Shown here: positions 45,778 to 62,825 of the stretch, piece by piece
How the letters are laid out: each line of letters opens with the position of its first letter
How positions within the stretch are numbered: the stretch's first letter is position 1
Source of the DNA: an uncultured Anaerolineae bacterium
GTDB lineage: Bacteria > Chloroflexota > Anaerolineae > Anaerolineales > Villigracilaceae
Length of the DNA stretch: 64,000 nucleotides
NCBI GenBank assembly: GCA_903875215.1
Contig: CAIQVH010000036.1
Span: 1-64,000, forward strand
Direction of reading: 5' to 3'
The notes under the pieces: model-generated
Database searches by the model: none
The model's input: the letters and a program-made list of their open reading frames with translations, nothing else
What the model was told of the DNA's origin: nothing
Made by a program: the position numbers and the translations under genes

Positions 45778-45791
45778 CCTTCTCCAATCAA

Positions 45792-47831
45792 CTACCGCCA
45801 TTCATTAAAAACGGAATCGTCATTGTCAGAACTTCGGGGGGTTGCCTGAGGAGTTTTATGATTCCCAGGCCCATAAAATCCCTGCGTTTGATCTGCGTCA
45901 TCCCCTTTGTAAACATCTGTTTTACGCGGGTCATCCGCCGAAGCCACAGGCTCGACGGCTGTTTTGCGTACTTCGGATGCCTCAGTCGAAAATTCGAACA
46001 CCACTGGCTGCTGGGTGAAATAACCCAGGCGGACTTTTTGACCACTGTTTATCCGTACAGGCTCATTAAAGGGAATGGGTTGATCATCCAGAAAAGTCTC
46101 ACTACCGCTTTGAGATAGGGCAACAATGCGCCAGTAGCCACTCAATTTCTCCAATCGAGCATGCAGGCCGCTGATGGATGTGTTCACATCCGGACCATAA
46201 AAAGTCATGTCAGCCAGTTGCGGATTTCGACCCAACTTGATACTCTCTGTATAAATCTTCAATTCCTGACCTATAATCGTGGGAGGACCATCCAACACCT
46301 TGAGTGATGCCAATGGTTTTCCTTTTTTCCCGCCACCGACGAGAGTCTTTCGAATTTCGCCACCTATTTTCGCCAGGGCCGCCCCACCTTGCTTGGCCAG
46401 GACTCCGATTTTGCGCCACATGATGATAACGAGGATGATCAGTACGATGACGACAGATCCCAACACCAGCACTTCAGTGCGCTCGTACCATTTCGGAGGC
46501 TGGATAGGTTCATCATTATTAATAATCGTTACAGAAAGCGGTGCAGAATAAGCATCATTGCCAAACTCATCCACTAGTTTTATCTTCAATGAAAGATAAT
46601 GCTCCCCAGGGACATTGATGGCAGCAAAATTCCAGGTTACTTGATATGCATTATCTCCAACAGAATCCAGCGGGACATCAATCTGAGTCTCTTGACCATT
46701 TTCATTCCAGACTAAAGCAGCGCCTTTAATCTCTCGTGGATACGAATCGCCCCAGTTCACACGAAAAGTATAGGTCGAGCTATCCTGGTCGTAAAGGATA
46801 TTCCCATCCTGGGTTTGAGCAGTAGCCGCACGATTGATGACCGGTTCACCTTCCAGCAATACCGTGGGAGGCAGAATATCCACAGTATAGGAAGCCTGCC
46901 CCTTGATCGGGATGTTTGCAGTTTGATAAATTGCCGAAATCGAATGAGAACCAGCCTCGCCTGAATTGGTTCGATATTTGGCAGAATAGACTTGTTTGTA
47001 GACTTTAAAACTATCCAACAATTCCGGCTTTACATCGTCTTCTACAGATTTAATTTGCCAATAAACCCCACCCGTTTTTTGAGCTAGTGATTCGTAAATA
47101 TCCCGGGATTGATACTTGCCTGCCAAATGTAACACCATCGTCTTGGCCAGGCTGGTCTTTATACGATTGGCAAAAGAATCGACACCTCCCATGAGCAAAG
47201 CATCATCACCCATCAACATGATGATCACCCGGGTCTTTTGACAAATATCCGGGTTGGTTTCAATCTGGCTCAATACTGTATCCAAACTTGCATTCACAGA
47301 TCTGTAAGTCAAATCGCCATATAAAGGGTAACCACTGGCGGCTTCAGAGAAAGTATTCCCACTCCTTCCTCCTGGATAGTATAAATAAGCTCCATTTTCT
47401 TGATCGGTGTACACCTTAATTGTATCGGTTGCCTCATTGACATAACCTGAATTGGCAAAAGTCTGCAAAATACTCCTGACATAATCCTGGGGAGTACGGT
47501 TGCCAACATCAACAATAACATAGTAATCAATGCCAACCTCACCACCATCCTGGATACTGCCTTCCAATGGCACCGAGGTTTGCCCATTTTCAGAAATGCG
47601 CAAGTCGGTTTCTGCGGGCCGAATCGGGAGGTAATTCTGATCCAATAATCTGAAGTTCAAAGACACATAAGGGAAACTTGCCGCATTGGGTGCCGACGTA
47701 ACACATAACACTGGCCCTTGCGCTGATTGCAAAGCCTGGCCAGATAGGCGCTGAGCGTACCCGACGCCAGGCACCGCAAAAAGAACAACAAGCAAAATCA
47801 CAGCCTGGATGAAATTTGAGCGAAGTTTCAT
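45792..47831 (-). CDS. secreted-type VWA-like domain, transmembrane helix and cytoplasmic FHA domain
   Basis: A 679-aa single-span membrane protein. A signal peptide (AVILLVVLFAVPGVGYA, cut near 26) leads to an outer region with a von Willebrand A-like fold: VGIDYYVIVDVGNRTP stands where a metal site normally reads DxSxS, and TRVIIMLMGDDALLMGG follows. An Ig-like part comes next (about 310-440), then a helix at 452-475. The inner part ends in an FHA domain (about 535-605; LGRNPQLADM, SISGLHARLEKL) with the phosphothreonine-binding Arg and Ser. A polar tail follows. AGGAG precedes the ATG. It could couple an external event to kinase signalling. Confidence 0.82.
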   Translation of the reverse strand: MKLRSNFIQAVILLVVLFAVPGVGYAQRLSGQALQSAQGPVLCVTSAPNAASFPYVSLNFRLLDQNYLPIRPAETDLRISENGQTSVPLEGSIQDGGEVGIDYYVIVDVGNRTPQDYVRSILQTFANSGYVNEATDTIKVYTDQENGAYLYYPGGRSGNTFSEAASGYPLYGDLTYRSVNASLDTVLSQIETNPDICQKTRVIIMLMGDDALLMGGVDSFANRIKTSLAKTMVLHLAGKYQSRDIYESLAQKTGGVYWQIKSVEDDVKPELLDSFKVYKQVYSAKYRTNSGEAGSHSISAIYQTANIPIKGQASYTVDILPPTVLLEGEPVINRAATAQTQDGNILYDQDSSTYTFRVNWGDSYPREIKGAALVWNENGQETQIDVPLDSVGDNAYQVTWNFAAINVPGEHYLSLKIKLVDEFGNDAYSAPLSVTIINNDEPIQPPKWYERTEVLVLGSVVIVLIILVIIMWRKIGVLAKQGGAALAKIGGEIRKTLVGGGKKGKPLASLKVLDGPPTIIGQELKIYTESIKLGRNPQLADMTFYGPDVNTSISGLHARLEKLSGYWRIVALSQSGSETFLDDQPIPFNEPVRINSGQKVRLGYFTQQPVVFEFSTEASEVRKTAVEPVASADDPRKTDVYKGDDADQTQGFYGPGNHKTPQATPRSSDNDDSVFNEWR

Positions 47832-47864: not shown

Positions 47865-48593
47865 TTAATATCTTGAAATACGTAAAGTCATATACAACAA
47901 GGACTGCTCAGGAACACCGCCAAAACCCAAACGATATTCATCGAGAATCTCGTAATTCACTCCGGCCTGTAATTTTTGTTTGTTATTTAAAAATACCAGA
48001 GAGTTTGCCTTCTCATCTACTTTTACATACCACCGACCATTCTCTTCCAAGAGCCAGGCCTGTTTACGGGAGATCCTGGTTGCATATTCTCCCAAAAAGG
48101 GAGTCAAATCGATGTCGGGGTTAATCTGATTCTCGCGATCCGGGCGTCCGATCAGCAACCGGCGTTTATCAAACACCTCGATTTTCTGTTTATGAATCCA
48201 AATCTCTAAATGAACCTGGCCCCTTCCAGTTCTAACAAAGAAAACATGAGACCCTGGGTAAATCAAATCCCCCAAAGCGGTATTTCCATTGACATTATCT
48301 ACCTGGGCCACCCCGGTCAAAGTACTATCAACTGCTAACGGAGTAGCGACGTAAATCTGGAAGTCCTTGGGATCATATTCAGGGTGTTCTTTATTCAATA
48401 TTCTTAATACCTCACTAAACACCCCAAGAGCCGGTGCTGCTGGTTCAGCGCTGAACCCTTCAGATTTATCCACAACCATCTGAGCCCGAAATGACACCAA
48501 AGCCTGATCTACCGGCAGTGGATTATTGTCCTCCCTTGACGGCAATGGCATTGTTCGAATATCTTGTGATGCTGGCAACATCTTGTTTCCCAT
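47865..48593 (-). CDS. FHA-domain protein
   Basis: A 242-aa cytoplasmic protein. Residues about 20-130 are unrecognised (FQIYVATPLAVDSTLTGVAQ). The C-terminal half is an FHA domain: LLIGRPDRENQINPDIDLTP, TRISRKQAWLLEENGRWYVK, NSLVFLNNKQKLQAGVNYEI. The binding Arg and Ser are kept, while the usual His after them is Gln. FHA domains bind phosphothreonine; in Firmicutes type VII systems the EssC motor carries them at its N-terminus, whereas here they are separate genes. I start at 48593 because GAGG lies 7 bases upstream; the frame also opens at a TTG. Confidence 0.83.
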   Translation of the reverse strand: MGNKMLPASQDIRTMPLPSREDNNPLPVDQALVSFRAQMVVDKSEGFSAEPAAPALGVFSEVLRILNKEHPEYDPKDFQIYVATPLAVDSTLTGVAQVDNVNGNTALGDLIYPGSHVFFVRTGRGQVHLEIWIHKQKIEVFDKRRLLIGRPDRENQINPDIDLTPFLGEYATRISRKQAWLLEENGRWYVKVDEKANSLVFLNNKQKLQAGVNYEILDEYRLGFGGVPEQSLLYMTLRISRY

Positions 48594-48664
48594 GGTCAAG
48601 CCTCGACAAATACAATCACCCAGCCTTAAATTGACTTTTCGATCAACTCTGAAAATGCGTTTCC

Positions 48665-49530: not shown

Positions 49531-50676
49531 TCACGGGCGAACTACTTGGGCCCAATGATCTCCATTGCTCCACATGCGGTCAAATTGGTCAGCTGGAATT
49601 TCCATTTCCTTTCCACTCCATGGATCGTTAATAAGTACATTTGACTCGGATACCCCTTTTACCAAAACAGAGTGATTGTAGGCATTTCCCTCCGACATGG
49701 CACGTTCTGGAAAACTGGTCAAACTAACCCTGACGTTGACCACCAGTGGACCGGATTTCAGTTCATCCTTCAATCCGGTCATGTCCGATTGGAAATTCCT
49801 GGTTTCCTTGTATCCCAGCTCGGCTAAATCGTCATTCAGTCTATCCAGACCCACGCCAGAGCCCGGAGTACCGTCCCCGCTATCCAGCATTTTGATTAAA
49901 TCACCAGGCTCTACGGCTTTATTGTCAGAATTCTGGTTATGATAATATTTAGTCAGCATGCTGAGAGATGTGGGCAGGCAGGCGGCACTTCCATAAGCAG
50001 TCCCCTGAGATTGGGGGGCAATCTCATAGAACGTATCATACCCGTCCCGAGCAGGCGCCTGGGGTACCACTGGGGCAGGCGCTTGTGGCTGGGCTGAGGG
50101 GCTGGCCGGGCTGTCATGGATCAGCTTGCCCAATGGGGTTTCCCCGGAAGGCTCAGAAGAAGGCGCGGCCGGCGGTGCATTGCCAGGCACAGGCGATACG
50201 ACCACGGGCTGCGGGGCTGGCGCAGGATCCGCGAAAAATCTCCTGCCGATTTCCTGCAGCCAGGCGGGCAAGCCAAGAATGGGGCCAATAAAAAAAATAG
50301 CCGGAACGGGAATTAATTGATACCAATACATTCCCGTCGTTTCGTCGAAGTTAGGAGAACCACCGAGATAAAGCTGCAAGCCTCCCCCACTAAACGGGGA
50401 ACCCGCTCCACCCAACGTGGCTGCACTCTGCTCCCATTCAGCGACTTCATTCTCCGCCCGCCCGGCCAGCACTTCCCCAGCCTGGATCTGGGCCTCCAAC
50501 TGCCGCAGGATGCCTTCCACTTCCATCACGAACTCATCCCGGCTGGGGCCAATCCAATCCACGGATTGGGCGGAGCCATTTAGCGCCTGAGCCTGGCTGC
50601 GCATACTCTCAGCAGCCTGCTTGATCTGGGCCGCCATTGCGCGGACGGCGTCGGTTTCCATATGGTAGGTAGTCAT
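49531..50676 (-). CDS. WXG100 domain fused to a C39-like cysteine peptidase, candidate secreted effector
   Basis: 381 aa. Residues 1 to about 90 are a WXG100 (ESAT-6-like) helical hairpin with the turn WIGPSRDEF. A hydrophobic stretch (YWYQLIPVPAIFFIGPILGL) and a Pro/Ala-rich linker (about 145-210) follow. The last 165 residues look like a Peptidase_C39_2 domain: catalytic Cys in YGSAACLPTSLSML, His in NHSVLVKGV and Asp in INDPWSGKEME. WXG100 modules target proteins to type VII secretion, so this is probably an exported peptidase acting on competitors or on its own surface. A weak AGGA precedes the ATG. Confidence 0.82.
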   Translation of the reverse strand: MTTYHMETDAVRAMAAQIKQAAESMRSQAQALNGSAQSVDWIGPSRDEFVMEVEGILRQLEAQIQAGEVLAGRAENEVAEWEQSAATLGGAGSPFSGGGLQLYLGGSPNFDETTGMYWYQLIPVPAIFFIGPILGLPAWLQEIGRRFFADPAPAPQPVVVSPVPGNAPPAAPSSEPSGETPLGKLIHDSPASPSAQPQAPAPVVPQAPARDGYDTFYEIAPQSQGTAYGSAACLPTSLSMLTKYYHNQNSDNKAVEPGDLIKMLDSGDGTPGSGVGLDRLNDDLAELGYKETRNFQSDMTGLKDELKSGPLVVNVRVSLTSFPERAMSEGNAYNHSVLVKGVSESNVLINDPWSGKEMEIPADQFDRMWSNGDHWAQVVRP

Positions 50677-51029
50677 AAGATTACAGTCCTAACAACTCAC
50701 GCTTATCTCAAGTTTGGCTGGTCCGATTTCACAAATACTCGCTCCATTCCCAGAATCCGCACTCAATAATCGTAAATATTTGAAATTAATGCCTCTCCGG
50801 GTAAAAAAACAGGCGTTTTTGGATGACTTTCTTCCAATTAACGTGAATTCTGAAGTCAGATTGGGTCACAGCTTGGAAAAATTCTCAGAAAATTGAAGGG
50901 CGCATCATCTGTGAGGCTGATACTAGTGTTAAAGTGAATGAAAATCCAAAAATTCTTATGCAGGGTCGCAAAAAGTGGGGCAATAACCTGGAATCGATTA
51001 ATTTATTTCCGAATTGCGAGTTAATCCGG
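50677..51029 (-). other. 353-bp intergenic stretch, no gene seen
   Basis: An AT-rich gap between two WXG100-headed genes. Short frames here lack ribosome sites and family features. On the - strand a TTGACC lies near 51035 without a convincing -10. It may hold a decayed gene or an unrecognised promoter. Confidence 0.4.
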
Positions 51030-51689
51030 TCAAGTGTTTAAATTATTTTTCCGAGCATGTAATTGCTCGAGCAGGCCCAATTGAGCATTATATTCTTTAA
51101 ATAATTTACTTAAGTCATCGATTCCATTTCTCAAGGTAAAAATTGTGTCCCCAGTTGGGAGCAAACCAATCGTAGAAAGATTTACTGTGTACTTAAATAT
51201 CTTAAACCACATTTCTAGTCGATCTCGACCAGCCAAATCTCCTCCTATATCTCTAATTTTTTGTTTTATTTCTTCAAGTTTTTGTTCTTCAGCTGCTATC
51301 ACTCTTATTAATTCTTCTTCGGTTAGCTGATCTATTTCTTTTTGTTCATTAGGCATGGTTACTGATATTCCTAGAACATCACCAGGTTGAACATCCGGAT
51401 TTCCAACACCACTAGCACTTCCGCTTAACTGTTGAGCTGTTTCTTCCCACTCCGCCACTTCATTCTCCACCCTACCAGCCAAGACAACCCCAGCTTCGAC
51501 CCGGCCATCTATCTGGCGAACAATTTCAGCAACTTCAGCAACAAACTCATCGCGGCTCGGTCCCATCCAGTCTACAGATTGGGCTGAGCCATTCAAAGCC
51601 TGCATCTGTGACCGCATACTTTCAGCACCCTGCTTGATCTGGGCCGCCATTGCGCGGACGGCGTCGGTTTCCATGTGAAGAGTGGTCAT
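51030..51689 (-). CDS. WXG100-headed protein with helical C-terminal extension
   Basis: 219 aa. The first 90 or so residues are a WXG100 domain (turn WMGPSRDEF) very close to that of the peptidase fusion; a DNA block of about 40 bases at the 5' end is identical in the two genes. The C-terminal part has a charged helical hairpin (EELIRVIAAEEQKLEEIKQK) and a weakly hydrophobic segment (FKIFKYTVNLSTIGLLPTGD). I recognise no catalytic motif. AGGAG lies 8 bases before ATG. It is probably another secretion substrate. Confidence 0.75.
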   Translation of the reverse strand: MTTLHMETDAVRAMAAQIKQGAESMRSQMQALNGSAQSVDWMGPSRDEFVAEVAEIVRQIDGRVEAGVVLAGRVENEVAEWEETAQQLSGSASGVGNPDVQPGDVLGISVTMPNEQKEIDQLTEEELIRVIAAEEQKLEEIKQKIRDIGGDLAGRDRLEMWFKIFKYTVNLSTIGLLPTGDTIFTLRNGIDDLSKLFKEYNAQLGLLEQLHARKNNLNT

Positions 51690-51714
51690 CTTTAACGCTC
51701 CTGATTATCGTTTT

Positions 51715-52161
51715 TCAGTCAAACTCAAAAGACTGCAGCATAGCCGTCAAGATGATATCAAAATCATCCGCATCACCAGTCCTTGTGCGAGTGGTAGTGA
51801 TGGACACAAGCATTTGCCCTGCAATAAAAATTACCTGCCGTTGCACAATATGGGCTGAATGCTGCTGGTTATACCAGCTATATAGATGCTGATGACCGAT
51901 CAAATCACCCTTCGGATACTCGCCCTGCTCCAGAATTACAAATTCCGGGTATTCTTTTTTTTGTGTTTCAAGCGTGGTTGCAACTATCGATTCAAGGGTA
52001 GCGCTGGGGTCAAGTGGGCGCAGCGTAATCATCAAATTGGCACGGGCGCCATTTTGAGTTGGCGCAACAAACATCGCCTGGACCTGTGGATTGGATGTGA
52101 TAAACCAATCTGAAGGAACTTTCATGTGAAAACCAGGTCCCTTAAAATACATTTCAGTCAT
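51715..52161 (-). CDS. DcrB/DUF1795-like protein
   Basis: 148 aa, start at 52161 with GGAGG 6 bases upstream. The pattern FHMKVPSDWFITSNPQVQAM, then LMITLRPLDPSATLESIV, then a strand pair and a final TAMLQSFEFD matches DcrB/PsbP-like small proteins of the DUF1795 type as I recall them. Such proteins occur beside contact-dependent secretion effectors and may act as adaptors or chaperones. There is no signal peptide, so it would work in the cytoplasm here. It lies between two WXG100-headed genes. Confidence 0.6.
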   Translation of the reverse strand: MTEMYFKGPGFHMKVPSDWFITSNPQVQAMFVAPTQNGARANLMITLRPLDPSATLESIVATTLETQKKEYPEFVILEQGEYPKGDLIGHQHLYSWYNQQHSAHIVQRQVIFIAGQMLVSITTTRTRTGDADDFDIILTAMLQSFEFD

Positions 52162-52198
52162 AAGAGCCTCCAAAGGTTAGATTGTTAAACTATCCACA

Positions 52199-53326
52199 TC
52201 AAAACAACCAATCAACAGCATCCGTGCCTAGTTCAGTAATTGTCTTAGCAGCCTTGTTCACATCCAAATCAACCGAAATACCACCTTCAACACCCAGGCC
52301 TAAGGTAGCACCTAATTCAAATTCCGCCCGCGCATGACCTTCCGAAAAACCGATATCACCTTTGGCTGTAGCGCCCAAACCATAACTTACCCCACCGGTA
52401 GCCTTGGCTTTGACTGCTCCCACTTCGGCGGTTGCCGTTCCTTCTGCCTTTGCTCCAACAAATTCATCGAATTGAGCTTTTGCACCGACTTCGCCTTTTT
52501 TGGGATCCCAGACTGCGTTCCCCTGCAGGTTATATTCAGCCCCGGCAAAGGCTACCGCTGCAATTCCCACGCCAGCAACACTGGCGTCATAGGTGCCCTT
52601 TGCAGCATAAAACCCTTTGCTCCATTCACCCGATGCCTGCAAAGCACCCTCTTTATATACCAGGCTGCCCTTAACAGACTCTTCAACAGAACCCAAACTT
52701 CCGCCAAAATTCCCGAGGCTCGTGGCTCTGTGTCCATCCCACACTGCAGTGTTTCTACTTCTGCCATATTCCCATAATATGGCAGAACCTTTAACATATT
52801 CTTTCTTAAATGGGTCTTTTTCAATAAATTGTTTGGCCTCGTCAAAAGTTAAGTCACCCTTCAGATAACCAGAGTAACTTCTGCTTTCTCGGCCCAATAA
52901 TAAGCTATATTCAGTGTCGGCAGGTCCATCCTTTAGCGGCCCCCACCCTCCATCACCGCCCCCCCCATTTCGTCCACCAGCACCACCTCCACCGCCACCA
53001 TTTAAAAAACTGGATAGGTTCGACACCATGCCTGCTTGTCCATTACTCCCGCCAGCAAGACTCTGGGACCTTTGTTCCCATTCAGAGACCTCGTTCTCAA
53101 CACGCTGTGCCAATACTATCCCTGCTTCGGCCTGTCCATCAATTTGACGAATCAACCCCTCAACTTCTGAGACAAATTCTTCCCGGCTGGGTCCCATCCA
53201 ATCAACAGACTGGACGGAACCATTCAGCACCTGAAGCTGGTTTTGTATCATGTCAACAGCCTGTTTAAGCTGGCCGGCCACGGCACGAACAGAATCAGTT
53301 TCCATGTGGAGAATGGTCATATCCAT
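52199..53326 (-). CDS. WXG100-headed protein with Gly/Ala-rich C-terminal domain, candidate effector
   Basis: 375 aa. Residues about 1-95 form a WXG100 domain (turn WMGPSREEF). A Gly-rich linker (NGGGGGGAGGRNGGGGDGG, about 115-135) separates it from a domain of roughly 230 residues rich in Gly, Ala and alternating polar residues (GVGIAAVAFAGAEYNLQGNA, GVSYGLGATAKGDIGF), which suggests a beta-rich or membrane-interacting fold. No catalytic motif is recognised. The start is 53326 or the ATG two codons later; neither has a strong ribosome site. Modular design like a polymorphic toxin. Confidence 0.72.
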   Translation of the reverse strand: MDMTILHMETDSVRAVAGQLKQAVDMIQNQLQVLNGSVQSVDWMGPSREEFVSEVEGLIRQIDGQAEAGIVLAQRVENEVSEWEQRSQSLAGGSNGQAGMVSNLSSFLNGGGGGGAGGRNGGGGDGGWGPLKDGPADTEYSLLLGRESRSYSGYLKGDLTFDEAKQFIEKDPFKKEYVKGSAILWEYGRSRNTAVWDGHRATSLGNFGGSLGSVEESVKGSLVYKEGALQASGEWSKGFYAAKGTYDASVAGVGIAAVAFAGAEYNLQGNAVWDPKKGEVGAKAQFDEFVGAKAEGTATAEVGAVKAKATGGVSYGLGATAKGDIGFSEGHARAEFELGATLGLGVEGGISVDLDVNKAAKTITELGTDAVDWLF

Positions 53327-53762: not shown

Positions 53763-54041
53763 CTAGGACAGTTTGGCAGCAGTTTGCTCAAATTCAGCAA
53801 TTTCAGCACTCAGGCGCTGCTGCAATGTGGCAAGTTGCTCCATCATTTGCTTCATCGCCGCCGCCCACTCCTGGTAGGCGGACTGGAACTCATTCGCAGA
53901 TGGCGCAATCCATGCGCTGCCTACTGTGCTGTTGACCACATTTCCCAGGCTGTTCACCTGCTCTTCCAGGTTACCCTTGGTGTTGGTCATTGTGGTTGCC
54001 GTGTTGCGGCATGAATCAACTTCCATGTGAATTGTTGCCAT
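53763..54041 (-). CDS. small WXG100/ESAT-6-like protein (EsxA-like)
   Basis: 92 aa, the size of canonical EsxA. Two helices flank WIAPSANEF, so the central motif is WxA rather than WxG; the C-terminus EIAEFEQTAAKLS is typical of WXG100. GGAGG lies 6 bases before the ATG at 54041; a longer open frame upstream is non-coding. It follows the EccC motor gene with its own promoter and is followed by a hairpin, fitting the abundant main substrate or carrier of a type VII system. Confidence 0.87.
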   Translation of the reverse strand: MATIHMEVDSCRNTATTMTNTKGNLEEQVNSLGNVVNSTVGSAWIAPSANEFQSAYQEWAAAMKQMMEQLATLQQRLSAEIAEFEQTAAKLS

Positions 54042-54101
54042 TTTATACCTCCATGCTTGAACAAAAGATGGGAGCAACCGCCCCCTTGACGATAACAATA
54101 T

Positions 54102-54130
54102 TGTATAGTAAGTTGCGGCCCAGCAAACAA
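54102..54130 (-). promoter_or_regulatory. candidate internal promoter for the WXG100 genes
   Basis: On the - strand TTGTTT, a 17-base spacer and TATACA, about 61 bases before the small WXG100 start. A small stem CTTAC/GTAAG (54132-54147) stands just upstream. It would let substrates be expressed above the motor. Confidence 0.5.
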
Positions 54131-54170
54131 ACTTACATATTTGTAAGGAGTAAAAAACCAGACTCATCAT

Positions 54171-57100
54171 TTAGCCCTGCTCTCTTAAGCTCTGGACCCA
54201 TTCATCTGTGGCAGGGTAGCCATAATGACAGGTTGCCAACTTCAACGGGATGTACTTTCCTCGAAAAATTGAAAATGCCATCCCTTTGGGCAAGCCCTTC
54301 AGGTTCTCACCTTGCATGAACTGAAAATTAAAATTGCTGGCTTCCCCATTAGATCCATCACCCAACCAGATTCCTCGCTGAAAACCTCGCAGAGTCTCCC
54401 CAACAGGATTCATGGTCATACCACCGCCAAATTCCGTTGGAATTCCGGTGGCGATCATATGAAAGCGAGCATTCTTGACACGCAATAGCGAAAGCAAAAA
54501 GTCCCGGTTTTTTTCTGCCAGAGATCCCGGGCCGCTGGAAATCCCTTTTTGATAGGCGCCAATCCCATCTATGGCAAAAACTACGGTGGGTTGGGTAGAA
54601 TGCTCCAACACAACCGGTTTGGGGCCAGATAAGTCCAGGTTGAGGAAATCTTGTACTTGGGCTTTGAGATCGATGGTCTTGAAATCCGCAACGTCGGTAA
54701 TGCACCCTAGGCAATGGGGCAGGCTCTTTAAAGCTTCGAAGTTTCCCCATCCAAGATCCACCAGATAAAAACGGAAAGCATCCGGGGAATAACATTCGGC
54801 CAAACCCAACATCCAGGTTTGCAGCAGGCTGGTTTTTCCAGATTGAGGCAACCCCGAAATCCAAAAATGCGGTCCGGAGGATAAAGTAATATTAAAAGCG
54901 GGGAGATCCGGCTTTGAAAGATCGAGGCCGATCGGCAATGAGAGTTCAGTGGGGGTAAGGGTTTTTTGCCTACCGGGCTTTAAAAAATCACTCAGCCCGA
55001 GAATTTCCGGCAAAATGGGAACCAGGCGGGGTTTATCTCCTTGCCAGGCCCGACCCATTTCTTCAGCCAGGTTCTTGATTTCTATCGGACTGGATGCGGG
55101 TAAGGCGGCCTGGAATTCTTTGACAGGCTGGCCCTTAAATAGACCTCGTCCGGGTGAATCTTTAGGCGGATACATGCCCCCCGTACGGCCAACAATAGAA
55201 ATATAATCCGCAGTGTCATTAAGTTCTGTACTGGCGACATCTTTAATGTTTCCGAGTAGTTTGGATGGGAATGATTTCACCTGATCCGTACTGACTATCA
55301 GATGTATTCCAAGGTTGCCACCCTGGCTGGCAATCCGCATAATATTGTCAATTTCAGTTGTGTAGGTCTGAAGCTTGAAGGATTCGGCAAAGTGGGAGTA
55401 ACCATCCAGGATAACAATTATCTCTGGCTCGGGGCTATCAGGATGATTGGCGCGATAGGCAATCATGTTTTGGTCTTGCTCAACCAACTTCTTGCGGCGC
55501 TCAATTTCTTCATTCAGCAAAGAGAAGAAACGCCTCAACCGCTCGTTCTCCCCGTTTGTAATGACCGCTCCAACATGCGGCATATGTTCGAATATGCTAA
55601 ACGTTCGCCCGGCATAATCAAGCAGGTAAATATGAACTTGTTCTGGCGTGTGATCGCGGCATAAACTTGTAACCAGGGTTTGCAAAGCTGTGGTCTTGCC
55701 ACTTCCCGGAGAACCAAACAAGGCAAAATGACCATTATTCTCGAGGTCAATTGGCATCAGTTCCTGACATTGTAAATCCGGATTGTCAAGAATTCCCAAT
55801 ATTGGCCGGGCATGAACAGAGGGGGACTTCCAACTTGAACCATTCCAGGCAGTATCTGGCAAAATTTGTTGTAATGTTCTATCAGCCTGTTCAGAAAGCG
55901 CCGGGGGCCAAATCCCGTCGAGTCGTTTGATCCCATTTTTCTGGCAAACGTCTAGAATCAGGGATGCCAATTCTTGAAGCTGTGTCTTGCCAGTCCCGGC
56001 GCTGGTGTTTTTGGGAGGCCATATAGATTCCCGCATTCCATCCGCTTTGATGCGGGAAATTCGGGGTTGTTGGCTAAAAGTATCTTCTGGCGTATAAGGA
56101 GCATCGCCCCAGGCAGCCTGAAAAAGCTCGAAAACTTCATTCATCCCGACTTGGAAATATGCGCGACCTTTTTGAGTTATTTCAGCAGCCTCAGGACGCT
56201 TGAGCATTTCACGGCTATCCTCAAGGCTGGCCACCTTCAAGCAAAGATGAAAGTGCGAGTTAGCCCAAATTTCATCACTCACCACGCCAGCCGGTTTTTG
56301 AGTAGCGAGAATCAGGTGAATTCCCAAACTTCTCCCCACTCGCGAAATACTCACCAGTTCTCGAATAAAATCCGGCTGTTCCTTTTTCAGTTCTGCAAAT
56401 TCATCGCAGACAATGACGAGATGTGGCATGGGTATGGGAGCATCTGGATCCTGGGCCCGAACCATACGTTGATAGTCATAAATATTGCCGATACCGGCTT
56501 GATTAAATTGTTTTTGGCGTTTTTTAATTTCGCCTCTTAATATTTTAATCGCTCGATCCGTTCCAGAGCCATCCAGGTTGGTCAAGGTCCCAATCATATG
56601 AGGAAGCTCTTTCAAATCTCGGATTAAGTCGCCTCCCTTAAAATCAATGCCAATGAATCCAAGCTCATGAGGGTGATAGTGCAGAGCCGCCAAAGCCAGA
56701 TAGGTGCTTAATAATGCCGTCTTTCCAGACCCTGTGGTGCCTGCGACCAAGCCGTGAGGCCCATGTGCTTTCTCGTGCAAATCAAGCACCAATCGCTTCC
56801 CCCCCCCACCTGTACCAACCGGCACAGCAAGGGTATCAAAAGGCTTGCTTTGCTTCCAGATTTCAAGGACATTAATCTCGCTGAGCTCATTTGCCCCAAT
56901 TAATTCCAATAAGGTAACTGTTCCCGGAAGGTTGGCAGCGCCGCCGCCAGCTTCTGCAAGGCGTATCGGGGCCAAGGATTGCGCAAAATCCCAAGCCTCA
57001 CCAAGGCCGATCGTGTCAGGCGAAAAATTAAGTTTCACAGGAGCTGTGCCAAGAAATTTTAGCACAGCTGGTGTTGAATGCAAATCAACAATTGCTCTAC

Positions 57101-58304
57101 AAGCTTTCGGCACCCGGGAAATTTGCCCCGCCAGAAAGAGTGGAAAAGCGCCCAGGCTGGGGCCGTTCTTCAAAATCAGATCAAGAACTGGCGCAAATTT
57201 TATGGCTTCAGTGCCTCGCCATATATTGATATCTGCAAAAATGATGATAAAAACCGGGCTGGGTAAAGCATCAGTTTCCGCCTTAGACAGCTGTTGATTG
57301 GCGCGCTGTTTCAGTATATTCTCAATATGCCCCATCACATTGGCTTGTGAGGCTTTGCTATTGGCGAAAAAACGAATCTCCCGGCCGTCACTCCAATTAT
57401 GGGGTAACCAACGCACCCAATCCCACTCCTGGGCTTCTTTTGAAGAGGACAAGATAACGATTTTTACTTCACTTGGAGCATGATGGGTGGCCAAATGAAC
57501 AATGGAAGCGCGAACAGCCTTTACAAGATTGACACTTTTTCCCACCCATCCAGCTGCTCCGACCCGGATCATTGGCAATACGACCGCAATATCATCAACC
57601 ATCTCAAAGCGAGGCGCCAAATCGCGAGCCTTCTCCTCCAAAGGATCAGGGGTGACTTGAAATTGAGAAAGCTCTGGCACCTTTACATGGAATGTTGAGT
57701 GAGTTTGCCCATTTCCCATGCAAATATCCAAAAAATCAGGATCACCATTTTCGCGGTCCCATAATTTCGTCGGAATACAATCTCTAGCAATTTGGGCGCA
57801 TTTGGACAAAACAGGATGGGCAGCCCTGCTGGCTTCTCGCTGTGCCTGCGCCAGCTCCAATAATTCGGCGGTTTTCTTTTCAAGATATATTTCGTACGTT
57901 GATTGCCTTAATTCAACCTGTTGTTTGTATTTCTTATTATCAAGGTAATATTTCGTAATGCCCCCAATAAATGAAATCAACGCCATGGGAAGGGACATAA
58001 GAGCAAAAATTGGAATCCCTGTACTGGTAGAACTGGCAGTGGCACTGGCGCTATAAATGGCAAAAACCACCATTAACATCATCCCAACGACCGGTAATAG
58101 TGTCGATAGCAGCGATAAACCTGATGGGGTGGGAGGCGCAGGTGGCATCATAAGATTGACTTCATCCTCCGGATACGGTACATACTCACGCGGAGCGCGT
58201 GGAAATTCAGGAGGATAGTGCGAAGAAGCATCTGTCTCCAGGGCAGTCTGTCCGCTGGAAAAATTGAGGGGGCGTACCCCGGTAATGATGAGTGGACGAG
58301 TCAT
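54171..58304 (-). CDS. type VII secretion motor, EccC/EssC-like FtsK/SpoIIIE ATPase
   Basis: A 1377-aa membrane ATPase that would recognise WXG100 substrates and drive export. Two helices near 50-100 (LLSTLLPVVGMMLMVVFAIY, IFALMSLPMALISFIGG) are followed by three FtsK-type ATPase domains: Walker A GTTGSGKT (about 523), GSPGSGKT (about 868) and GLPQSGKT (about 1155). Walker B of the first is VIVCDEFAEL, complete; the second (VILDGYSHF) and third (FAIDGIGAY) lack the catalytic Glu. That is EccCa-EccCb architecture on one chain, without the N-terminal FHA domains of Firmicutes EssC. I start at 58304 with GGGAGGG 6 bases upstream. Confidence 0.9.
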   Translation of the reverse strand: MTRPLIITGVRPLNFSSGQTALETDASSHYPPEFPRAPREYVPYPEDEVNLMMPPAPPTPSGLSLLSTLLPVVGMMLMVVFAIYSASATASSTSTGIPIFALMSLPMALISFIGGITKYYLDNKKYKQQVELRQSTYEIYLEKKTAELLELAQAQREASRAAHPVLSKCAQIARDCIPTKLWDRENGDPDFLDICMGNGQTHSTFHVKVPELSQFQVTPDPLEEKARDLAPRFEMVDDIAVVLPMIRVGAAGWVGKSVNLVKAVRASIVHLATHHAPSEVKIVILSSSKEAQEWDWVRWLPHNWSDGREIRFFANSKASQANVMGHIENILKQRANQQLSKAETDALPSPVFIIIFADINIWRGTEAIKFAPVLDLILKNGPSLGAFPLFLAGQISRVPKACRAIVDLHSTPAVLKFLGTAPVKLNFSPDTIGLGEAWDFAQSLAPIRLAEAGGGAANLPGTVTLLELIGANELSEINVLEIWKQSKPFDTLAVPVGTGGGGKRLVLDLHEKAHGPHGLVAGTTGSGKTALLSTYLALAALHYHPHELGFIGIDFKGGDLIRDLKELPHMIGTLTNLDGSGTDRAIKILRGEIKKRQKQFNQAGIGNIYDYQRMVRAQDPDAPIPMPHLVIVCDEFAELKKEQPDFIRELVSISRVGRSLGIHLILATQKPAGVVSDEIWANSHFHLCLKVASLEDSREMLKRPEAAEITQKGRAYFQVGMNEVFELFQAAWGDAPYTPEDTFSQQPRISRIKADGMRESIWPPKNTSAGTGKTQLQELASLILDVCQKNGIKRLDGIWPPALSEQADRTLQQILPDTAWNGSSWKSPSVHARPILGILDNPDLQCQELMPIDLENNGHFALFGSPGSGKTTALQTLVTSLCRDHTPEQVHIYLLDYAGRTFSIFEHMPHVGAVITNGENERLRRFFSLLNEEIERRKKLVEQDQNMIAYRANHPDSPEPEIIVILDGYSHFAESFKLQTYTTEIDNIMRIASQGGNLGIHLIVSTDQVKSFPSKLLGNIKDVASTELNDTADYISIVGRTGGMYPPKDSPGRGLFKGQPVKEFQAALPASSPIEIKNLAEEMGRAWQGDKPRLVPILPEILGLSDFLKPGRQKTLTPTELSLPIGLDLSKPDLPAFNITLSSGPHFWISGLPQSGKTSLLQTWMLGLAECYSPDAFRFYLVDLGWGNFEALKSLPHCLGCITDVADFKTIDLKAQVQDFLNLDLSGPKPVVLEHSTQPTVVFAIDGIGAYQKGISSGPGSLAEKNRDFLLSLLRVKNARFHMIATGIPTEFGGGMTMNPVGETLRGFQRGIWLGDGSNGEASNFNFQFMQGENLKGLPKGMAFSIFRGKYIPLKLATCHYGYPATDEWVQSLREQG

Positions 58305-58326
58305 AGGAACCCTCCCAGGGATTGGT

Positions 58327-58776
58327 TTATTCATCCTGCATAAATGAAGTCGATTTTTGGCCCGAATTTGACACGGGTGGCAAACGTATCACCATTGTTG
58401 GCTCAGATCTTTCCTCGTCTGTATCGGAAACGCTTTTTTGTTTATCCCAGGATAAATTTTCCCCACCGTATGCATGATCCTGAGAAGATGAAACCCGAAT
58501 AATTCGGTAACCGAAAGCCGTTTTTTGAGGAACTTTTAACTTTGGGGGACGATTAGACATGATCAACAAGAGTTGTGAGCCATCCCAGGCATTTACTTCG
58601 GCCAATGTCTGGCTACTATCTAAAATCTTCCCATTAATTTGGATGTCATAAACACCATCCCACCCAAATGCGGCCGCAATTGCGTCTGCCAGATCATCTG
58701 CCGGCACATCTGGCATCACCTCAATGTCCTGAACACTTTCGCGAGGACGCCCTACCATGATGATTACAGGATCCAT
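58327..58776 (-). CDS. ubiquitin-like protein of the EsaB/YukD type
   Basis: 149 aa. Residues 1 to about 75 read as a beta-grasp fold: VIIMVGRPRESVQDIEVMPD, ADDLADAIAAAFGW, YDIQINGKILDSSQTLAEVN and WDGSQLLLIMS. Type VII systems carry such a domain as free EsaB/YukD or as the EccD N-terminus. A polar tail of 70 residues is not recognised. GGAG precedes the ATG by 6 bases. It lies directly before the EccC-like gene, whose frame it overlaps slightly. Confidence 0.72.
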   Translation of the reverse strand: MDPVIIMVGRPRESVQDIEVMPDVPADDLADAIAAAFGWDGVYDIQINGKILDSSQTLAEVNAWDGSQLLLIMSNRPPKLKVPQKTAFGYRIIRVSSSQDHAYGGENLSWDKQKSVSDTDEERSEPTMVIRLPPVSNSGQKSTSFMQDE

Positions 58777-58799: not shown

Positions 58800-61700
58800 C
58801 TATTCGCTTGCCAGTAGACGAATATAGTCAATTTCAAATGTTGATGGTTTTTCTGCAGGATCAAGACGAATCTGCGTTATCGTACCTGCCCAACCTTTTA
58901 CTGCAGACATATTCAAAACATATGTATGGAATGAGTCATCTCCAATAATTGAAAAATGCAAGGATTTATTTTCAGAATATGTACTTTCTGACGAAGTGAT
59001 AAAAAAGAGTTGCGCATTATTTCCAGATGCAACCTTGAGACGAATTTTAATAATCGGATACTTCTTGGCATCTAATATAAACTTGGGGGATCCCAGGTAG
59101 GGATCAATGCCCGTTGATTTCGCCTGAAGCATGCCTTGGTTGATTTGGATATTGGCAATCTGACTCCAAGGTTCCCAACCTTCAGCGCCCCCAGCAGTTT
59201 CAAATTCCCAAGCCAATCCATCTGCATCCCGGGCACAACGAAAACCAACCGAGTTTTTAGCACTGGTCGCAAATTCTGCTCCCCGTAACGTAGAACCAAT
59301 ATGGATGGCAACACTATTCCAGGATCCACCGCGCACAACGTGATAGGTACCCGATTTTGGTCCCATGGGATCATTTTGGGGAGAAATATGGTAATAGTTT
59401 GCATCATAGAAATCATCTACCCATTCCCACACGTTCCCGGCCAGGTCGTACACCCCAAAAGGACTTTGCCCCAGATCATAGGTCCCCACCTCAGTGGTGT
59501 CGCCAAGCTGGCCAGCATAGTTCGCGAATTTTAAATCCGCATTTCTCCCCCATGGATAGACAATTCCACTTGCGGGACTGCTGGAAGGCCCTCGCGCCGC
59601 ATATTCCCACTCTGCCTCAGTAGGCAATCGGGCATCGCTCCAGGCACAAAAAGCATCGGCATCAACCCAGCTGACATTTATCACCGGGTAATTATCATAC
59701 AGCGAGTTCCCATAATAACTCAACCGTGTAGCAGAATCGAGCCTCGTTGGCAGGCGGCAGCCACCTGCCGTCTGACAGGCCATATAAGCCGCATTAGTCA
59801 CTTCGTACTTGTCAATATAAAAAGACAACAATACCACTTTATGCACAGGTTTTTCATCACTGGATCCATCGGAGTTACCCATCCAGAAACCACCGCCCAA
59901 AATCCTAACCATTTCATCTTCCAGTTTTGATTTCGCGAGAGGATTTTCCGAATTTTGGGTTGGTGTAGATCCGGGCATCCCTGTGGCCATTGCCACTGAC
60001 TCAGGGAGGTTATTCGAGTGCGCACAACGAAACCCAACCATACCACTCGCAGTAGATTCAATCATTCCAATTCGATTTGCAGACCGCACATCATTGGCCG
60101 GGTCATTCCAAGAACCACCCCGCACCACCCGCCCCAATCCAGTTTGAGTTTCTAATGGATTGGTCACGGGAGAGTCTTCATACAACGTATATGCATCATC
60201 CACCCACTCGGCAATATTGCCAGTCATGTCATACACCCCAAATGAAGATTTCCCCTTTTCATAAGATCCAACGGCCAGCGTATCTCCCTTATCATTCTGA
60301 TAATTGGCATTACCAGAATCGATGGTATTACCCCATGAAAACCTTCGTCCATCTACTCCACGGGAGGCATATTCCCACTCCGCTTCAGTGGATAGCCGGG
60401 CGCCACGCCATTCACAATACGCGCGTGCCATTTGCCAATTAACATAGATCACAGGAAAATTGGTATAGATTGGGTCATCATAATAACTGTCTCGCGTGCG
60501 AGAATAGCTTTGCACAGGTGGCTGACAGGTTCCACTCGCGACACACAGTTTGTATTGAGCATTGGTGACTTCAAATTTATCCAAATAAAAGGATGAAAGC
60601 GTCACTTCATGAACCGGTTGCTCGTTTGAGTCTCCGATCAGGCTGCCCATTTTGAACGTACCGCCCGGAATTAATATCATGCCTGCGGTTGGATCTGGTG
60701 TCGCAGAAGGAGTGGAAATAGGAGTCGGCGTCGAGACATTGGTTGGCAAAGTTACTGTAACCGATAATTGTTGGGAAAGCCGGGTTGAGATGGGATTCAG
60801 AACCTGCGATAGGCTGGGAAAATTCCCATTTCTACCGAAGCCACCAATTAAAACACCAATTAAAAAGAAAAACCCCGCCAGGAGAAGACCAATTTTCCCA
60901 TTCTTCTGACGGATGAGCTCTATCCAATATGTTTTCCATCTTCTTCCTCCAGCATGTTGCGTAGCATTTGTAGCTGATGTTTCTTGTGGAATATTCTCAG
61001 TACAGGCAGCGCTAAACGCCAACATTCCAGGGAATCTGTTCTTAGGATCATCGGCCAGGGCACGCAGCAATATCTCGGTTAATTTGGGAGGAATACCTTC
61101 CAACATAGGTGCCGCATCGAGCGTTCCCAGCCATGCTTCTCCTGTCAAAGACTTGACCATCAAATATGCCAAATCATATTGGTCCGTCTTTTGTGTTGCT
61201 GACTTCCCTGCCAGGATTTCTGGAGCCGCAGGCTTCATAGCATTACTATAATTCTGCAAATCCTCATAGTGACAGACTTCGGTTACCCCAAAATCAGTAA
61301 GAACGAACTCCCCTGTATCCGACAAAATGATTTTATCAGGCAGGATATATCGATGCAGAATGCCTCTCTCATGGGCATAATCCAGTGCATGGGAAATATC
61401 GTGCACCATCTGAATAGCATCCCGCAAAGGCAGATACCCTCTTTTTTGTAAATAATTGTCCACGGTCTTGCCCGGGACGTACCGCATTGAAAGATACGAG
61501 ATTCCGTCTTCCTGACCATATTCCAATAGCTGGGCAATATTCGGGTGCTGTAATTGAGCCGCAAGACGCGCCCGCCGGATGGCACGCTCAAAGGTTGCGG
61601 AATCATTGAGTGATTCAGATTTAATACGCCGGAGAAGAACATCGCGATTCAAAAGGGTATCACGAGCATGGTACACTTCAGAAGCATGATCGGTGCTCAC

Positions 61701-62825
61701 AAGCTCGAGCAAGGTATATTTCGCCAACGAAGGTTTTTGCTCGGGCTCGGGAGCCGCACTTCCCGTAGCATGGAAAGGGGATTCAGCCTTTTTTTCTTCA
61801 GGTTGCCGTTTCTTATCCAATATCAGCAGCCCACCGCCCACAGCAACCATGATCCCAGCCCCTGCCAAGAATGGGATCATGACAGAGTAGAAGAGACTCT
61901 CCCAAATCCCTCTGATGAGTTGGGCAAGCACGCCAGAGGATAAGGAAGGGAGGATCTCTTGTAACAATAAATTGATGGGATAAGTAATACCCGTTATCCA
62001 AAGGCCAGCCCCCAATAATAAACCCAGACCACCGCTCAGCAACAATGCCTTACTCAGCCGACGCAACGTGCTCGCACCAGGCACTCCGGGGAGAAATATA
62101 ACCAAAGATAAAAAGAACAACGGAATAGTGGGGCTGAATTTCACCACCCAACGCAAACGAGCCAGTAACTGAAGCTGTCCGGCGACCTGCGCCGCGGAAC
62201 CTTCACTGGACATGATATCAATTTCGTCGGGGAATGCTGCCAGCCACCGAGCCATTTCAGATTGCAATAAAGTATGTAGTTTATTTGAGACAGTTTGGGT
62301 CGGACGACAAGCAAAGGCTGTGGCTGAATCGGAGATCCAGCCCTGATGGATGGTAGTCGCAATAGCTTGCAATTGAGCAGAATGGCATGCAGGTTTCGCC
62401 TGGATAATTTGCTCCAAGACCGGCAAACCATTGATTGCGATGATTTTCTTAAGTTGTTTGGATGAAAATTTTGTCTGAGAACCATCCACTAATACCTGGG
62501 CTGAATCGATCCACTCTTCCAGCATGATTTGTGTGTCTAAGGGGGGCAATAAGACGGAAAAAGCCTGCTTTTTTTGTTCGGCAGATAAACCTTGGACGAT
62601 ATCCGCTAAAACTTGTCCATCGGCTGGCCTTCCCGGTATGGAAAGGCCAGCTTGTTCTGCCAGGATGGCCGGCAACATTTCGTAAAAATGATTGTTGATG
62701 AGCATGTTCTTGATAGTCTGCGCCGAGAAAACCTGTTGTTCTATCAGAACCAGGAACAGGGCCAGGACAGTTGTCAACACAAAGCCAGCCATAAAAAGGG
62801 CTGGAAAAACTTTTTTCGTCATCAT
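58800..62825 (-). CDS. multi-span membrane pseudokinase with two extracytoplasmic FGE-sulfatase domains
   Basis: 1341 aa, first gene of the cluster. A helix (6-28), an outer domain (about 30-235) and three helices (about 238-330) lead to a kinase fold (about 362-620) that looks dead: the catalytic HRD reads HRY (Tyr493), the ATP lysine position in VLLRRIK is Arg near 397, though TDFG remains. A fifth helix (645-665) and a Ser/Thr/Pro linker lead to two formylglycine-generating-enzyme-like domains (about 715-932 and 969-1195; MILIPGGTFKMGS, LSTEAEWEYASRG, VVRGGSWND, VGFRCA) and a C-terminal beta-sandwich. Membrane-plus-pseudokinase recalls EssB/YukC. The start ATG at 62825 follows AGGT; a TTG at 62909 is unlikely. 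Confidence 0.83.
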   Translation of the reverse strand: MMTKKVFPALFMAGFVLTTVLALFLVLIEQQVFSAQTIKNMLINNHFYEMLPAILAEQAGLSIPGRPADGQVLADIVQGLSAEQKKQAFSVLLPPLDTQIMLEEWIDSAQVLVDGSQTKFSSKQLKKIIAINGLPVLEQIIQAKPACHSAQLQAIATTIHQGWISDSATAFACRPTQTVSNKLHTLLQSEMARWLAAFPDEIDIMSSEGSAAQVAGQLQLLARLRWVVKFSPTIPLFFLSLVIFLPGVPGASTLRRLSKALLLSGGLGLLLGAGLWITGITYPINLLLQEILPSLSSGVLAQLIRGIWESLFYSVMIPFLAGAGIMVAVGGGLLILDKKRQPEEKKAESPFHATGSAAPEPEQKPSLAKYTLLELVSTDHASEVYHARDTLLNRDVLLRRIKSESLNDSATFERAIRRARLAAQLQHPNIAQLLEYGQEDGISYLSMRYVPGKTVDNYLQKRGYLPLRDAIQMVHDISHALDYAHERGILHRYILPDKIILSDTGEFVLTDFGVTEVCHYEDLQNYSNAMKPAAPEILAGKSATQKTDQYDLAYLMVKSLTGEAWLGTLDAAPMLEGIPPKLTEILLRALADDPKNRFPGMLAFSAACTENIPQETSATNATQHAGGRRWKTYWIELIRQKNGKIGLLLAGFFFLIGVLIGGFGRNGNFPSLSQVLNPISTRLSQQLSVTVTLPTNVSTPTPISTPSATPDPTAGMILIPGGTFKMGSLIGDSNEQPVHEVTLSSFYLDKFEVTNAQYKLCVASGTCQPPVQSYSRTRDSYYDDPIYTNFPVIYVNWQMARAYCEWRGARLSTEAEWEYASRGVDGRRFSWGNTIDSGNANYQNDKGDTLAVGSYEKGKSSFGVYDMTGNIAEWVDDAYTLYEDSPVTNPLETQTGLGRVVRGGSWNDPANDVRSANRIGMIESTASGMVGFRCAHSNNLPESVAMATGMPGSTPTQNSENPLAKSKLEDEMVRILGGGFWMGNSDGSSDEKPVHKVVLLSFYIDKYEVTNAAYMACQTAGGCRLPTRLDSATRLSYYGNSLYDNYPVINVSWVDADAFCAWSDARLPTEAEWEYAARGPSSSPASGIVYPWGRNADLKFANYAGQLGDTTEVGTYDLGQSPFGVYDLAGNVWEWVDDFYDANYYHISPQNDPMGPKSGTYHVVRGGSWNSVAIHIGSTLRGAEFATSAKNSVGFRCARDADGLAWEFETAGGAEGWEPWSQIANIQINQGMLQAKSTGIDPYLGSPKFILDAKKYPIIKIRLKVASGNNAQLFFITSSESTYSENKSLHFSIIGDDSFHTYVLNMSAVKGWAGTITQIRLDPAEKPSTFEIDYIRLLASE

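What the first reader, a model, noticed from the sequence alone, without database searches (positions are those of the whole stretch)
58800..62825. Membrane pseudokinase carrying two FGE-like domains: a candidate EssB analogue
The kinase fold has HRY for HRD and Arg at the ATP-lysine position, so it probably cannot phosphorylate. EssB/YukC of Firmicutes T7SS is also a membrane protein with a cytoplasmic pseudokinase domain. Here that fold sits between five membrane helices, and the outside carries two formylglycine-generating-enzyme folds plus a beta-sandwich. It could be the membrane platform that docks the motor, with the outer domains binding wall or partner cells.
Basis: partly seen in the sequence, partly recalled or inferred. 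Interest (0 to 1): 0.86.

Follow-up and report, generated by a model that had tools for sequence, protein, structure and literature searches.

The report
Dead kinase receptor in secretion operon
A bacterium of the Anaerolineae carries, as first gene of an operon for a type VII protein-secretion machine, a membrane protein whose inner kinase part has lost its catalytic residues and whose outer part carries two FGE-like domains without catalytic cysteines; it sits where other such machines carry a membrane kinase or EssB, but no sequence kinship to EssB could be found.

Summary
Window 58800-62825 (-) is an intact 1341-residue gene: a four-helix membrane domain, a PknB-type kinase domain with five catalytic positions replaced (R399, R418, Y493, L495, K498; DFG kept), a fifth helix, two FGE-like domains without the catalytic cysteines, and a C-terminal domain of unproven fold. 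It starts a tight operon: pseudokinase, YukD-like (weak hit), EssC (above NCBIfam's EssC cut-off, no FHA found), WXG100. Further on lie an intact soluble kinase, a PP2C and two FHA-type proteins.

It is not filed as EssB: no PF10140, no similarity to one fetched EssB, closest listed structures PknA/PknB, five helices, FGE-like outer part, no EssA or EsaA found in the genome. 'Works like EssB' stays open: T7SSc has a transmembrane kinase of EssB-like topology, and 13 of the 18 well-covered EssC loci (of 40 held) from this class carry a membrane kinase-fold protein within 5 kb. Best reading: a TscD-like kinase that lost catalysis and serves as scaffold or receptor, while a second operon kinase may phosphorylate. 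The exact fusion was seen only here, so it is a lineage-specific variant, not a conserved platform. The mechanism is inferred.

The parts
58800..62825 (-). whole gene, 1341 aa transmembrane pseudokinase with two FGE-like domains
61791..62825 (-). N-terminal membrane domain, residues 1-345: helix 10-28, part about 29-226 with C147 and C173 (invariant in 25 rows), helices 227-245, 260-278, 317-335
   Evidence: hydropathy; relatives; model pLDDT 84.3; no PDB fold match
60906..61757 (-). pseudokinase domain, residues 357-640
   Evidence: PF00069; residues; model pLDDT 81.5; fold matches
61347..61349 (-). codon of Y493, place of the catalytic Asp (HRY for HRD)
60837..60893 (-). fifth membrane helix, residues 645-663
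60015..60683 (-). FGE-like domain 1, residues 715-937, no Cys in the 26 residues from RGGSW
59226..59915 (-). FGE-like domain 2, residues 971-1200, 49% identical to domain 1; against FGE 6muj one of its two cysteines falls in a gap and the other faces Ala
58803..59225 (-). C-terminal domain, residues 1201-1341, fold not shown
58327..58776 (-). YukD-like (ubiquitin-like) protein, 149 aa
   Evidence: PF08817 E 0.043, below cut-off; profile grown from it joins it to L064, L117 and L122 proteins that pass the PF08817 cut-off
54171..58334 (-). EssC motor ATPase, 1387 aa, three FtsK stretches, no FHA found
   Evidence: TIGR03928 990.9 bits, cut-off 778.4
53763..54170 (-). WXG100 protein (true start probably an internal ATG near 54044, my reading)
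   Evidence: PF06013 1.4e-9; TIGR03930 45.8 bits, cut-off 44.85
49531..53326 (-). three proteins with WXG100-like N-termini and different C-termini (52199-53326, 51030-51689, 49531-50676 with a C39 peptidase), candidate substrates; DcrB-like 51715-52173 between them
   Evidence: the WXG100 matches of these three are below the Pfam cut-off
47865..48599 (-). FHA-like protein
   Evidence: PF00498 below cut-off, E 0.029; FHA profile made here 2e-7
45792..47831 (-). membrane protein with C-terminal FHA domain; N-terminal part VWA-like by layout only
   Evidence: PF00498 8.9e-6, over cut-off; VWA not confirmed
44857..45801 (-). soluble Ser/Thr kinase with Lys, alphaC-Glu and HRDLKPDN kept; DFG reads DFA, first glycine of the loop is Ser
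   Evidence: PF00069 1.3e-30
42850..44844 (-). PP2C phosphatase with membrane helix and FecR-like part (FecR just below cut-off)
   Evidence: PF13672 1e-15; helix

Best explanation
The protein is the transmembrane kinase-fold component of a type VII secretion system in a member of the Anaerolineae, in the place that the kinase TscD has in T7SSc and EssB in T7SSb. Its kinase domain has lost catalysis (shown on sequence, not by assay) and works as a docking or allosteric part inside the cell (inferred). Its two FGE-like domains lie outside (topology from hydropathy and charges, inferred) and do not work as FGE enzymes (catalytic cysteines absent), so they most likely bind a wall, partner-cell or envelope ligand (inferred). 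Ligand binding would be passed through the fifth helix to EssC, the YukD-like and the FHA proteins. Phosphorylation, if the system uses it, would come from the intact soluble kinase 44857-45801 and be removed by the PP2C (inferred from gene content).
For: Five catalytic residues lost while fold residues are kept, in an intact 1341-residue frame. Tight operon: 23 bp to the YukD-like gene, 8 bp overlap to EssC, WXG100 next. EssC passes the curated EssC cut-off. Of 18 EssC loci of the class with at least 5 kb on both sides, 14 have a kinase-fold gene within 5 kb, 13 one with a membrane helix, 11 one within two genes. The own genome shows about ten kinase places in 3.77 Mb, so about 0.04 per 14 kb; from the loose candidate counts the kinase-richest genomes would give up to about 0.2 (rough, no formal test). 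Kinase-helix-FGE proteins lie at other EssC loci: L064, L066 (two), L116, and as adjacent genes in L065. T7SSc has TscD, a transmembrane kinase of EssB-like topology (PMC11217815, section on T7SSc and passages read). The EssB pseudokinase binds the FHA domains of EssC (PMC10765036, passages).
Against: No interaction data. No ortholog with the same fusion: a pattern scan of genome contigs confirmed 0 relatives among 67 matches, and in 396 class genomes (at most 6 candidates scored in each) the best kinase hit by E-value is 37% identical; 30 of 35 domain rows from the best loci show HRD. The membrane domain was not found at other EssC loci. L067, with the order EssC-FHA-membrane FHA-kinase-PP2C, has no such gene in the 18 kb held, and 4 of 18 well-covered loci have no kinase-fold gene within 5 kb. 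No FHA was found on this EssC, the part to which EssB docks.
Confidence: 0.5

Rival explanations
1. It is a sensory pseudokinase that regulates, through the intact operon kinase, PP2C and FHA proteins, when the secretion system fires, without being part of the translocon, much as PpkA, PppA and Fha regulate T6SS.
For: Intact kinase, PP2C and two FHA-type proteins in the same gene run; the T6SS threonine phosphorylation pathway uses the same parts (PMC10482370, passages); outer FGE-like domains suit a sensor.
Against: It is contiguous with YukD-EssC-WXG100, whereas the intact kinase starts about 13 kb away, past the candidate substrate genes; L067 has the cassette without this gene in the 18 kb held.
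Confidence: 0.27
2. An ordinary kinase-helix-FGE receptor that sits in the operon by chance or is decaying; it has no role in secretion.
For: No ortholog found, long branch (1.83 and 2.1 changes per column), kinases are common in the class and the own genome holds further FGE and kinase genes.
Against: Intact frame, conserved fold residues, first gene of a tight operon, and kinase-fold genes recur at EssC loci.
Confidence: 0.13
3. The domain keeps an unusual catalytic or nucleotide-binding function (DFG is intact).
For: D511, F512, G513 and R492 kept.
Against: Lys, alphaC-Glu, catalytic Asp, catalytic Lys and Asn all replaced, glycine loop lost; no substitute Lys in the glycine loop.
Confidence: 0.06
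4. A true, very diverged EssB/YukC.
For: Pseudokinase-helix-outside order; EssC operon; degraded glycine loop and short activation segment, as described for EssB (PMC12599244, passages).
Against: No PF10140; hhalign probability 0.2%, E 0.25, and BLASTP E 0.32 against one real EssB, while the same profile finds a group-B pseudokinase at 99.1%; PknA/PknB closest of the listed structures; strong ordinary Pkinase match. The hhalign test is weak, because EssB proteins are themselves very diverse (15% identity between YukC and S. aureus EssB, PMC9600267, passage).
Confidence: 0.03

Closest known systems
TscD of T7SSc, with the kinases TsdD and TseD of T7SSd and T7SSe (Garrett, Higginson and Palmer 2024, PMC11217815)
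   Same: kinase fold and membrane helix beside an EssC-type motor and a WXG100 gene; T7SSc also has a ubiquitin-like protein, an FHA-less EssC and a PPM phosphatase
   Different: TscD has a conserved active site; here it is lost, four further helices precede it, the outer part is FGE-like, and a second, soluble kinase is present. The paper treats Bacillota and Actinomycetota; 'chloro' does not occur in its main text
EssB/YukC (PF10140) of T7SSb
   Same: transmembrane pseudokinase in an EssC operon, degraded glycine loop and short activation segment
   Different: no sequence kinship found, DFG kept, PknB-like model, five helices, FGE-like part after the last helix, no FHA found on EssC, no EssA or EsaA found in the genome
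TraF of the T4SS of pIP501 (PMC13037476, passages)
   Same: membrane pseudokinase of a secretion system
   Different: EssB-like structure in a conjugation system; not compared here by sequence
TshM of T7SSh (PMC11217815)
   Same: kinase-like protein of a T7SS cluster with a membrane helix
   Different: TshM ends in its helix and has no outer domain; this fits the 356-397-aa proteins of L075-L080, not the window protein
Receptor-like Ser/Thr kinases with an FGE-like domain (e.g. L064:5948-7849)
   Same: kinase-helix-FGE order
   Different: catalytic residues intact in L064 and no N-terminal membrane domain
PpkA-PppA-Fha pathway of T6SS (PMC10482370)
   Same: kinase, PP2C and FHA parts tied to a secretion system
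   Different: different secretion system; the membrane kinase fold here is inactive by sequence

Membership tests
EssB/YukC | matches PF10140 over the cut-off | tested here: not met
   no PF10140 hit to E 0.1; control EssB L159:7116-8291 hits at 1.2e-61; 0 of 298 class genomes over cut-off (3 weak), the search's own control rings in 3 genomes including B. subtilis, over the cut-off in 1
EssB/YukC | sequence or profile similarity to a known EssB | tested here: not met
   hhalign 0.2%, E 0.25; BLASTP E 0.32; one EssB only, as a single sequence, so a weak test
EssB/YukC | EssB-type pseudokinase structure closer than active kinases | tested here: inconclusive
   top 50 rows are PknA, PknB, PknI, Aurora and others; a family that is not listed is not excluded
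EssB/YukC | single membrane helix, then a helical outer domain | tested here: not met
   five helices by hydropathy; two FGE-like domains follow the last helix
EssB/YukC | partner EssC carries FHA domains to which the pseudokinase docks | tested here: not met
   no FHA found on the window EssC with the profile made here; only the best 25 of 34 Pfam families were shown and FHA was not among them. Docking to the separate FHA proteins could not be tested
T7SSb | EssC, EsxA-like, EsaB-like, EssA, EssB and EsaA all present | tested here: not met
   EssC and WXG100 met, YukD-like weak; EssA PF10661 and EsaA TIGR03929 none in the own genome (98.64% complete); controls ring in B. subtilis for both
T7SSc | WXG100, ubiquitin-like, FHA-less EssC, transmembrane kinase fold, PPM phosphatase | tested here: inconclusive
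   each has a counterpart, but the ubiquitin-like hit is weak and the PP2C has a membrane helix where TscF is cytoplasmic
T7SSc | active site conserved in the transmembrane kinase | tested here: not met
T7SSc | cytoplasmic vWA protein and EspG-like TscG | tested here: inconclusive
   VWA not confirmed in 45792-47831; 48818-49573 no Pfam hit, a relative L071:7566-8369 hits DUF5081 at E 0.0015, below cut-off
T7SSc | EssC groups with T7SSc EssC in a tree | not tested
   no T7SSc EssC was fetched
catalytic formylglycine-generating enzyme | two active-site cysteines after the RGGS motif (role recalled, not from a call) | tested here: not met
   domain 2 against 6muj: one Cys falls in a gap, the other faces Ala; no Cys in the 26 residues from RGGSW in either domain
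active Hanks-type kinase | Lys, alphaC-Glu, catalytic Asp, Asn | tested here: not met

The most novel reading that the evidence does not exclude
Type VII systems of the Anaerolineae place a membrane kinase-fold protein at the motor, and at least two kinds of it are catalytically dead (the window protein; the HLC proteins of L075-L080), so that 'kinase turned scaffold', in T7SS known from EssB, is a repeated step. In the window form the FGE-like domains are the outer receptor that ties firing to contact, and a second kinase has taken over phosphorylation. (The trees neither show nor reject a common origin of the two dead kinds.)
Probability: 0.3. Interest if true: 0.75.

Novelty: new variant of a known kind. 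Interest (0 to 1): 0.55.

Why it matters
How EssB came to be a pseudokinase, and why many T7SS clusters carry kinases, phosphatases and FHA proteins, is open. A locus with a dead membrane kinase and a live-looking soluble kinase lets the scaffold role and the signalling role be tested apart. It also gives an EssC-type system in a phylum for which the passages I read (PMC10765036, PMC3935865; found) say only that a small number of WXG100 sequences come from it; three further papers listed by those calls were not opened.

Tried and rejected
Diversity-generating retroelement: FGE-type folds can serve as variable proteins there (recalled), but no reverse transcriptase (PF00078) was found in the own genome, control ringing in 3 genomes, so dropped.

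Catalytic FGE role: dropped, cysteines absent.

Common origin of the window pseudokinase with the group-B (HLC) pseudokinases or with active family kinases: unresolved. In 74 rows the window row sits in a polytomy; in 35 rows it pairs with group B at 47/76 with a long-branch warning, and neither the clade with family kinases (p-AU 0.284) nor that with 44857 and its L067 relative (0.388) is rejected. I therefore claim no independent origin.

A joint alignment of residues 1-690 with membrane-domain and kinase rows misaligned; the two parts were modelled apart. EssB was not seen in the 50 rows shown by Foldseek and VIA; this does not exclude it. N-terminal membrane domain: no PDB fold (best E 0.37).

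The 'E' column of the motif table is two residues off; one search replaces it. Profiles were grown from the loci themselves, so their E-values are partly circular. The HC/GDLSxxN proteins have only weak Pfam kinase support (best E 0.0039 L116:5377, 0.0066 L115:1-513, 0.02 L086, 0.072 L116:1663; none listed for L113). EccB PF05108: no hit, but no control rang, so no statement. Activation segment length: 11 of 27 relatives gave no match to my pattern and 4 gave a false long one; these 15 were dropped.

Counts: 40 EssC loci were examined; 22 were set aside for having under 5 kb on one side. They are 20 and 20 stretches chosen from the matches listed, not all of them; four genomes or so are represented twice (G011, G081, G507).
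Full report
What is there. The gene at 58800-62825 (-) is intact, 1341 codons from an ATG at 62825. Pfam finds one kinase domain (4.8e-25; a second kinase model hits the same place) and two FGE-sulfatase stretches (2.9e-106) and no other family to E 0.1. Hydropathy gives four helices before and one after the kinase domain. With a lysine-rich N-terminus and K/R-rich loops at about 246-259 and after 335, this puts the kinase domain inside, and residues about 29-226 and from 664 on outside (inference from the positive-inside rule).

The kinase domain is a pseudokinase by sequence. In an alignment with 27 relatives, five catalytic positions are invariant in all 27 and changed here: R399, R418, Y493, L495, K498. 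The glycine loop is gone, the activation segment is short (20, against 23-28 in the 12 relatives measured), but HRD-Arg, DFG, the PE of APE, the F-helix Asp and the last Arg remain. The model (pLDDT 81.5) is closest to PknA, PknB and PknI (Z 29.1 to about 27; Foldseek). A sequence search of the PDB gives PknA, StkP, PknE and PknB first (60 of 1608 matches shown).

The outer part. FGE-like domains 1 and 2 are 49% identical over 227 columns. PDB relatives of domain 2 include formylglycine-generating enzyme, SUMF2, PvdO, EgtB and the T9SS protein PorK/GldK; NCBIfam also lists GldK first, below its cut-off. The two cysteines of the enzyme (role recalled) are missing. So these domains are more likely binding or structural than enzymatic (inference). 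The C-terminal 141 residues match no family.

The N-terminal membrane domain (1-345) has relatives in 101 of 150 genomes of the family, the window genome included. In the 29 loci looked at, 28 gave a separate ORF of 290-475 residues with a match; many neighbours look like an amidohydrolase gene from their first residues (my reading, not scanned). C147 and C173 are invariant in the 25-row alignment. A profile of it finds only the window protein among 480 proteins from EssC loci, the window operon and three own-genome loci. It is therefore most likely a fused-on domain of other origin and no core secretion part.

The operon. Downstream follow the YukD-like gene (gap 23 bp), EssC (overlap 8 bp) and WXG100. 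The motor scores 990.9 bits against the EssC cut-off of 778.4, and stays below the EccCa and EccCb cut-offs (474.1 of 509.15; 311.6 of 346.55). Among plasmid records its best-ranked matches are mainly Bacillota EssC proteins at 30-33% identity. No FHA domain was found on it. Further on come proteins with WXG100-like starts, then FHA-like, membrane-FHA, an intact-looking soluble kinase and a PP2C. EssA and EsaA were not found in the genome.

Relatives. EssC matches occur in 20 of 150 family genomes at E 1e-60 and 36 of 396 class genomes at E 1e-95, both including the window genome. I examined 40 loci (20 stretches from each list). Of the 18 with 5 kb on both sides: kinase fold 14, with helix 13, within two genes 11, FHA 13, WXG100 15, PP2C 5, FGE 4, YukD 3. 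Three kinds of membrane kinase-fold protein appear beside the window kind. (1) PknB-type kinases with intact motifs, some with FGE (L064, L066). (2) Where EssC has about 1510-1584 residues, a 356-397-residue protein with HLC for HRD and a C-terminal helix directly beside EssC in 6 of the 9 loci fetched (L075-L080; L072 and L073 are cut, L074 is well covered and has none). (3) HC/GDLSxxN proteins at several of the loci nearest by EssC sequence (L113, L116; partial in L086, L115) and at L071, one of them with FGE (L116); the nearest of all, L112, is a 6-kb contig without one.

EssB or not. Direct tests are negative for sequence kinship: PF10140 with a positive control, and BLASTP and hhalign against one EssB. 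The control for hhalign (99.1% to a group-B pseudokinase) shows that the profile works for kinases, not that it could see EssB, so this test is weak. The protein is not filed as EssB. As to function, the literature gives the nearer model: Garrett et al. 2024 (PMC11217815; T7SSc section and passages read) describe T7SSc with WXG100, ubiquitin-like, FHA-less EssC, transmembrane kinase TscD of EssB-like topology but with conserved active site, vWA, PPM phosphatase and an EspG-like protein. The window cluster has a counterpart for most of these, but the membrane kinase is dead by sequence and a soluble kinase looks live. I do not file it as T7SSc.

Mechanism (inferred). Outer FGE-like domains sense or bind; the helix and the pseudokinase pass this to EssC, YukD-like and FHA proteins by docking. 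The intact kinase and the PP2C may set the phosphorylation of the FHA partners. Whether the pseudokinase is part of the translocon (0.5) or a regulator beside it (0.27) cannot be settled by sequence.

Novelty. T7SS clusters with kinases, phosphatases and FHA proteins are published. New here, as far as four searches of the open library show (3, 2, 2 and 1 papers; passages of PMC10765036, PMC3935865 and PMC10949312 read; the others seen as listings), are the setting in Anaerolineae, the dead membrane kinase with a live-looking soluble one in the same gene run, and the FGE-like outer part.

Noticed in passing
42850-48599: Kinase, PP2C and two FHA-type proteins in one gene run beside a type VII locus; the order EssC, FHA, membrane FHA, kinase, PP2C is also in L067 (same family).
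   Followed up: partly
L075:11949-13019, L076:2767-3837, L077:11273-12343, L078:11476-12546, L079:11595-12692, L080:11410-12603: A 356-397-residue pseudokinase (HLC for HRD) with Cys-rich start and C-terminal helix directly beside EssC; by size and place a better EssB- or TshM-like candidate than the window protein.
   Followed up: partly
L113:1566-4331, L116:5377-7869, L116:1663-3825, L115:1-513, L086:3872-4573, L071:16778-18463: Very diverged kinase-like proteins with HC/GDLSxxN motif at or near EssC loci, some with membrane helix, TPR or FGE; Pfam barely sees them.
   Followed up: partly
L064:12851-13453, L065:4852-5451, L066:14888-15487, L070:3494-4093, L122:7023-7616: Small proteins with a YukD-like and an FHA domain at EssC loci (both confirmed by Pfam in L064 and L122 only); in L123 a YukD-like stretch just under the Pfam cut-off is on EssC itself.
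   Followed up: partly
48818-49573: Protein without Pfam hit, related to L064:15301-16125 and L071:7566-8369; the latter hits DUF5081 weakly, possibly a substrate chaperone.
   Followed up: no
49531-50676: WXG100-like N-terminus, helix and C39-type peptidase domain in one protein; candidate substrate or processing peptidase.
   Followed up: no
61791-62825: Family of four-helix membrane proteins with two invariant cysteines, common as stand-alone genes in this bacterial family; no Pfam hit in the window protein and no PDB fold match.
   Followed up: partly
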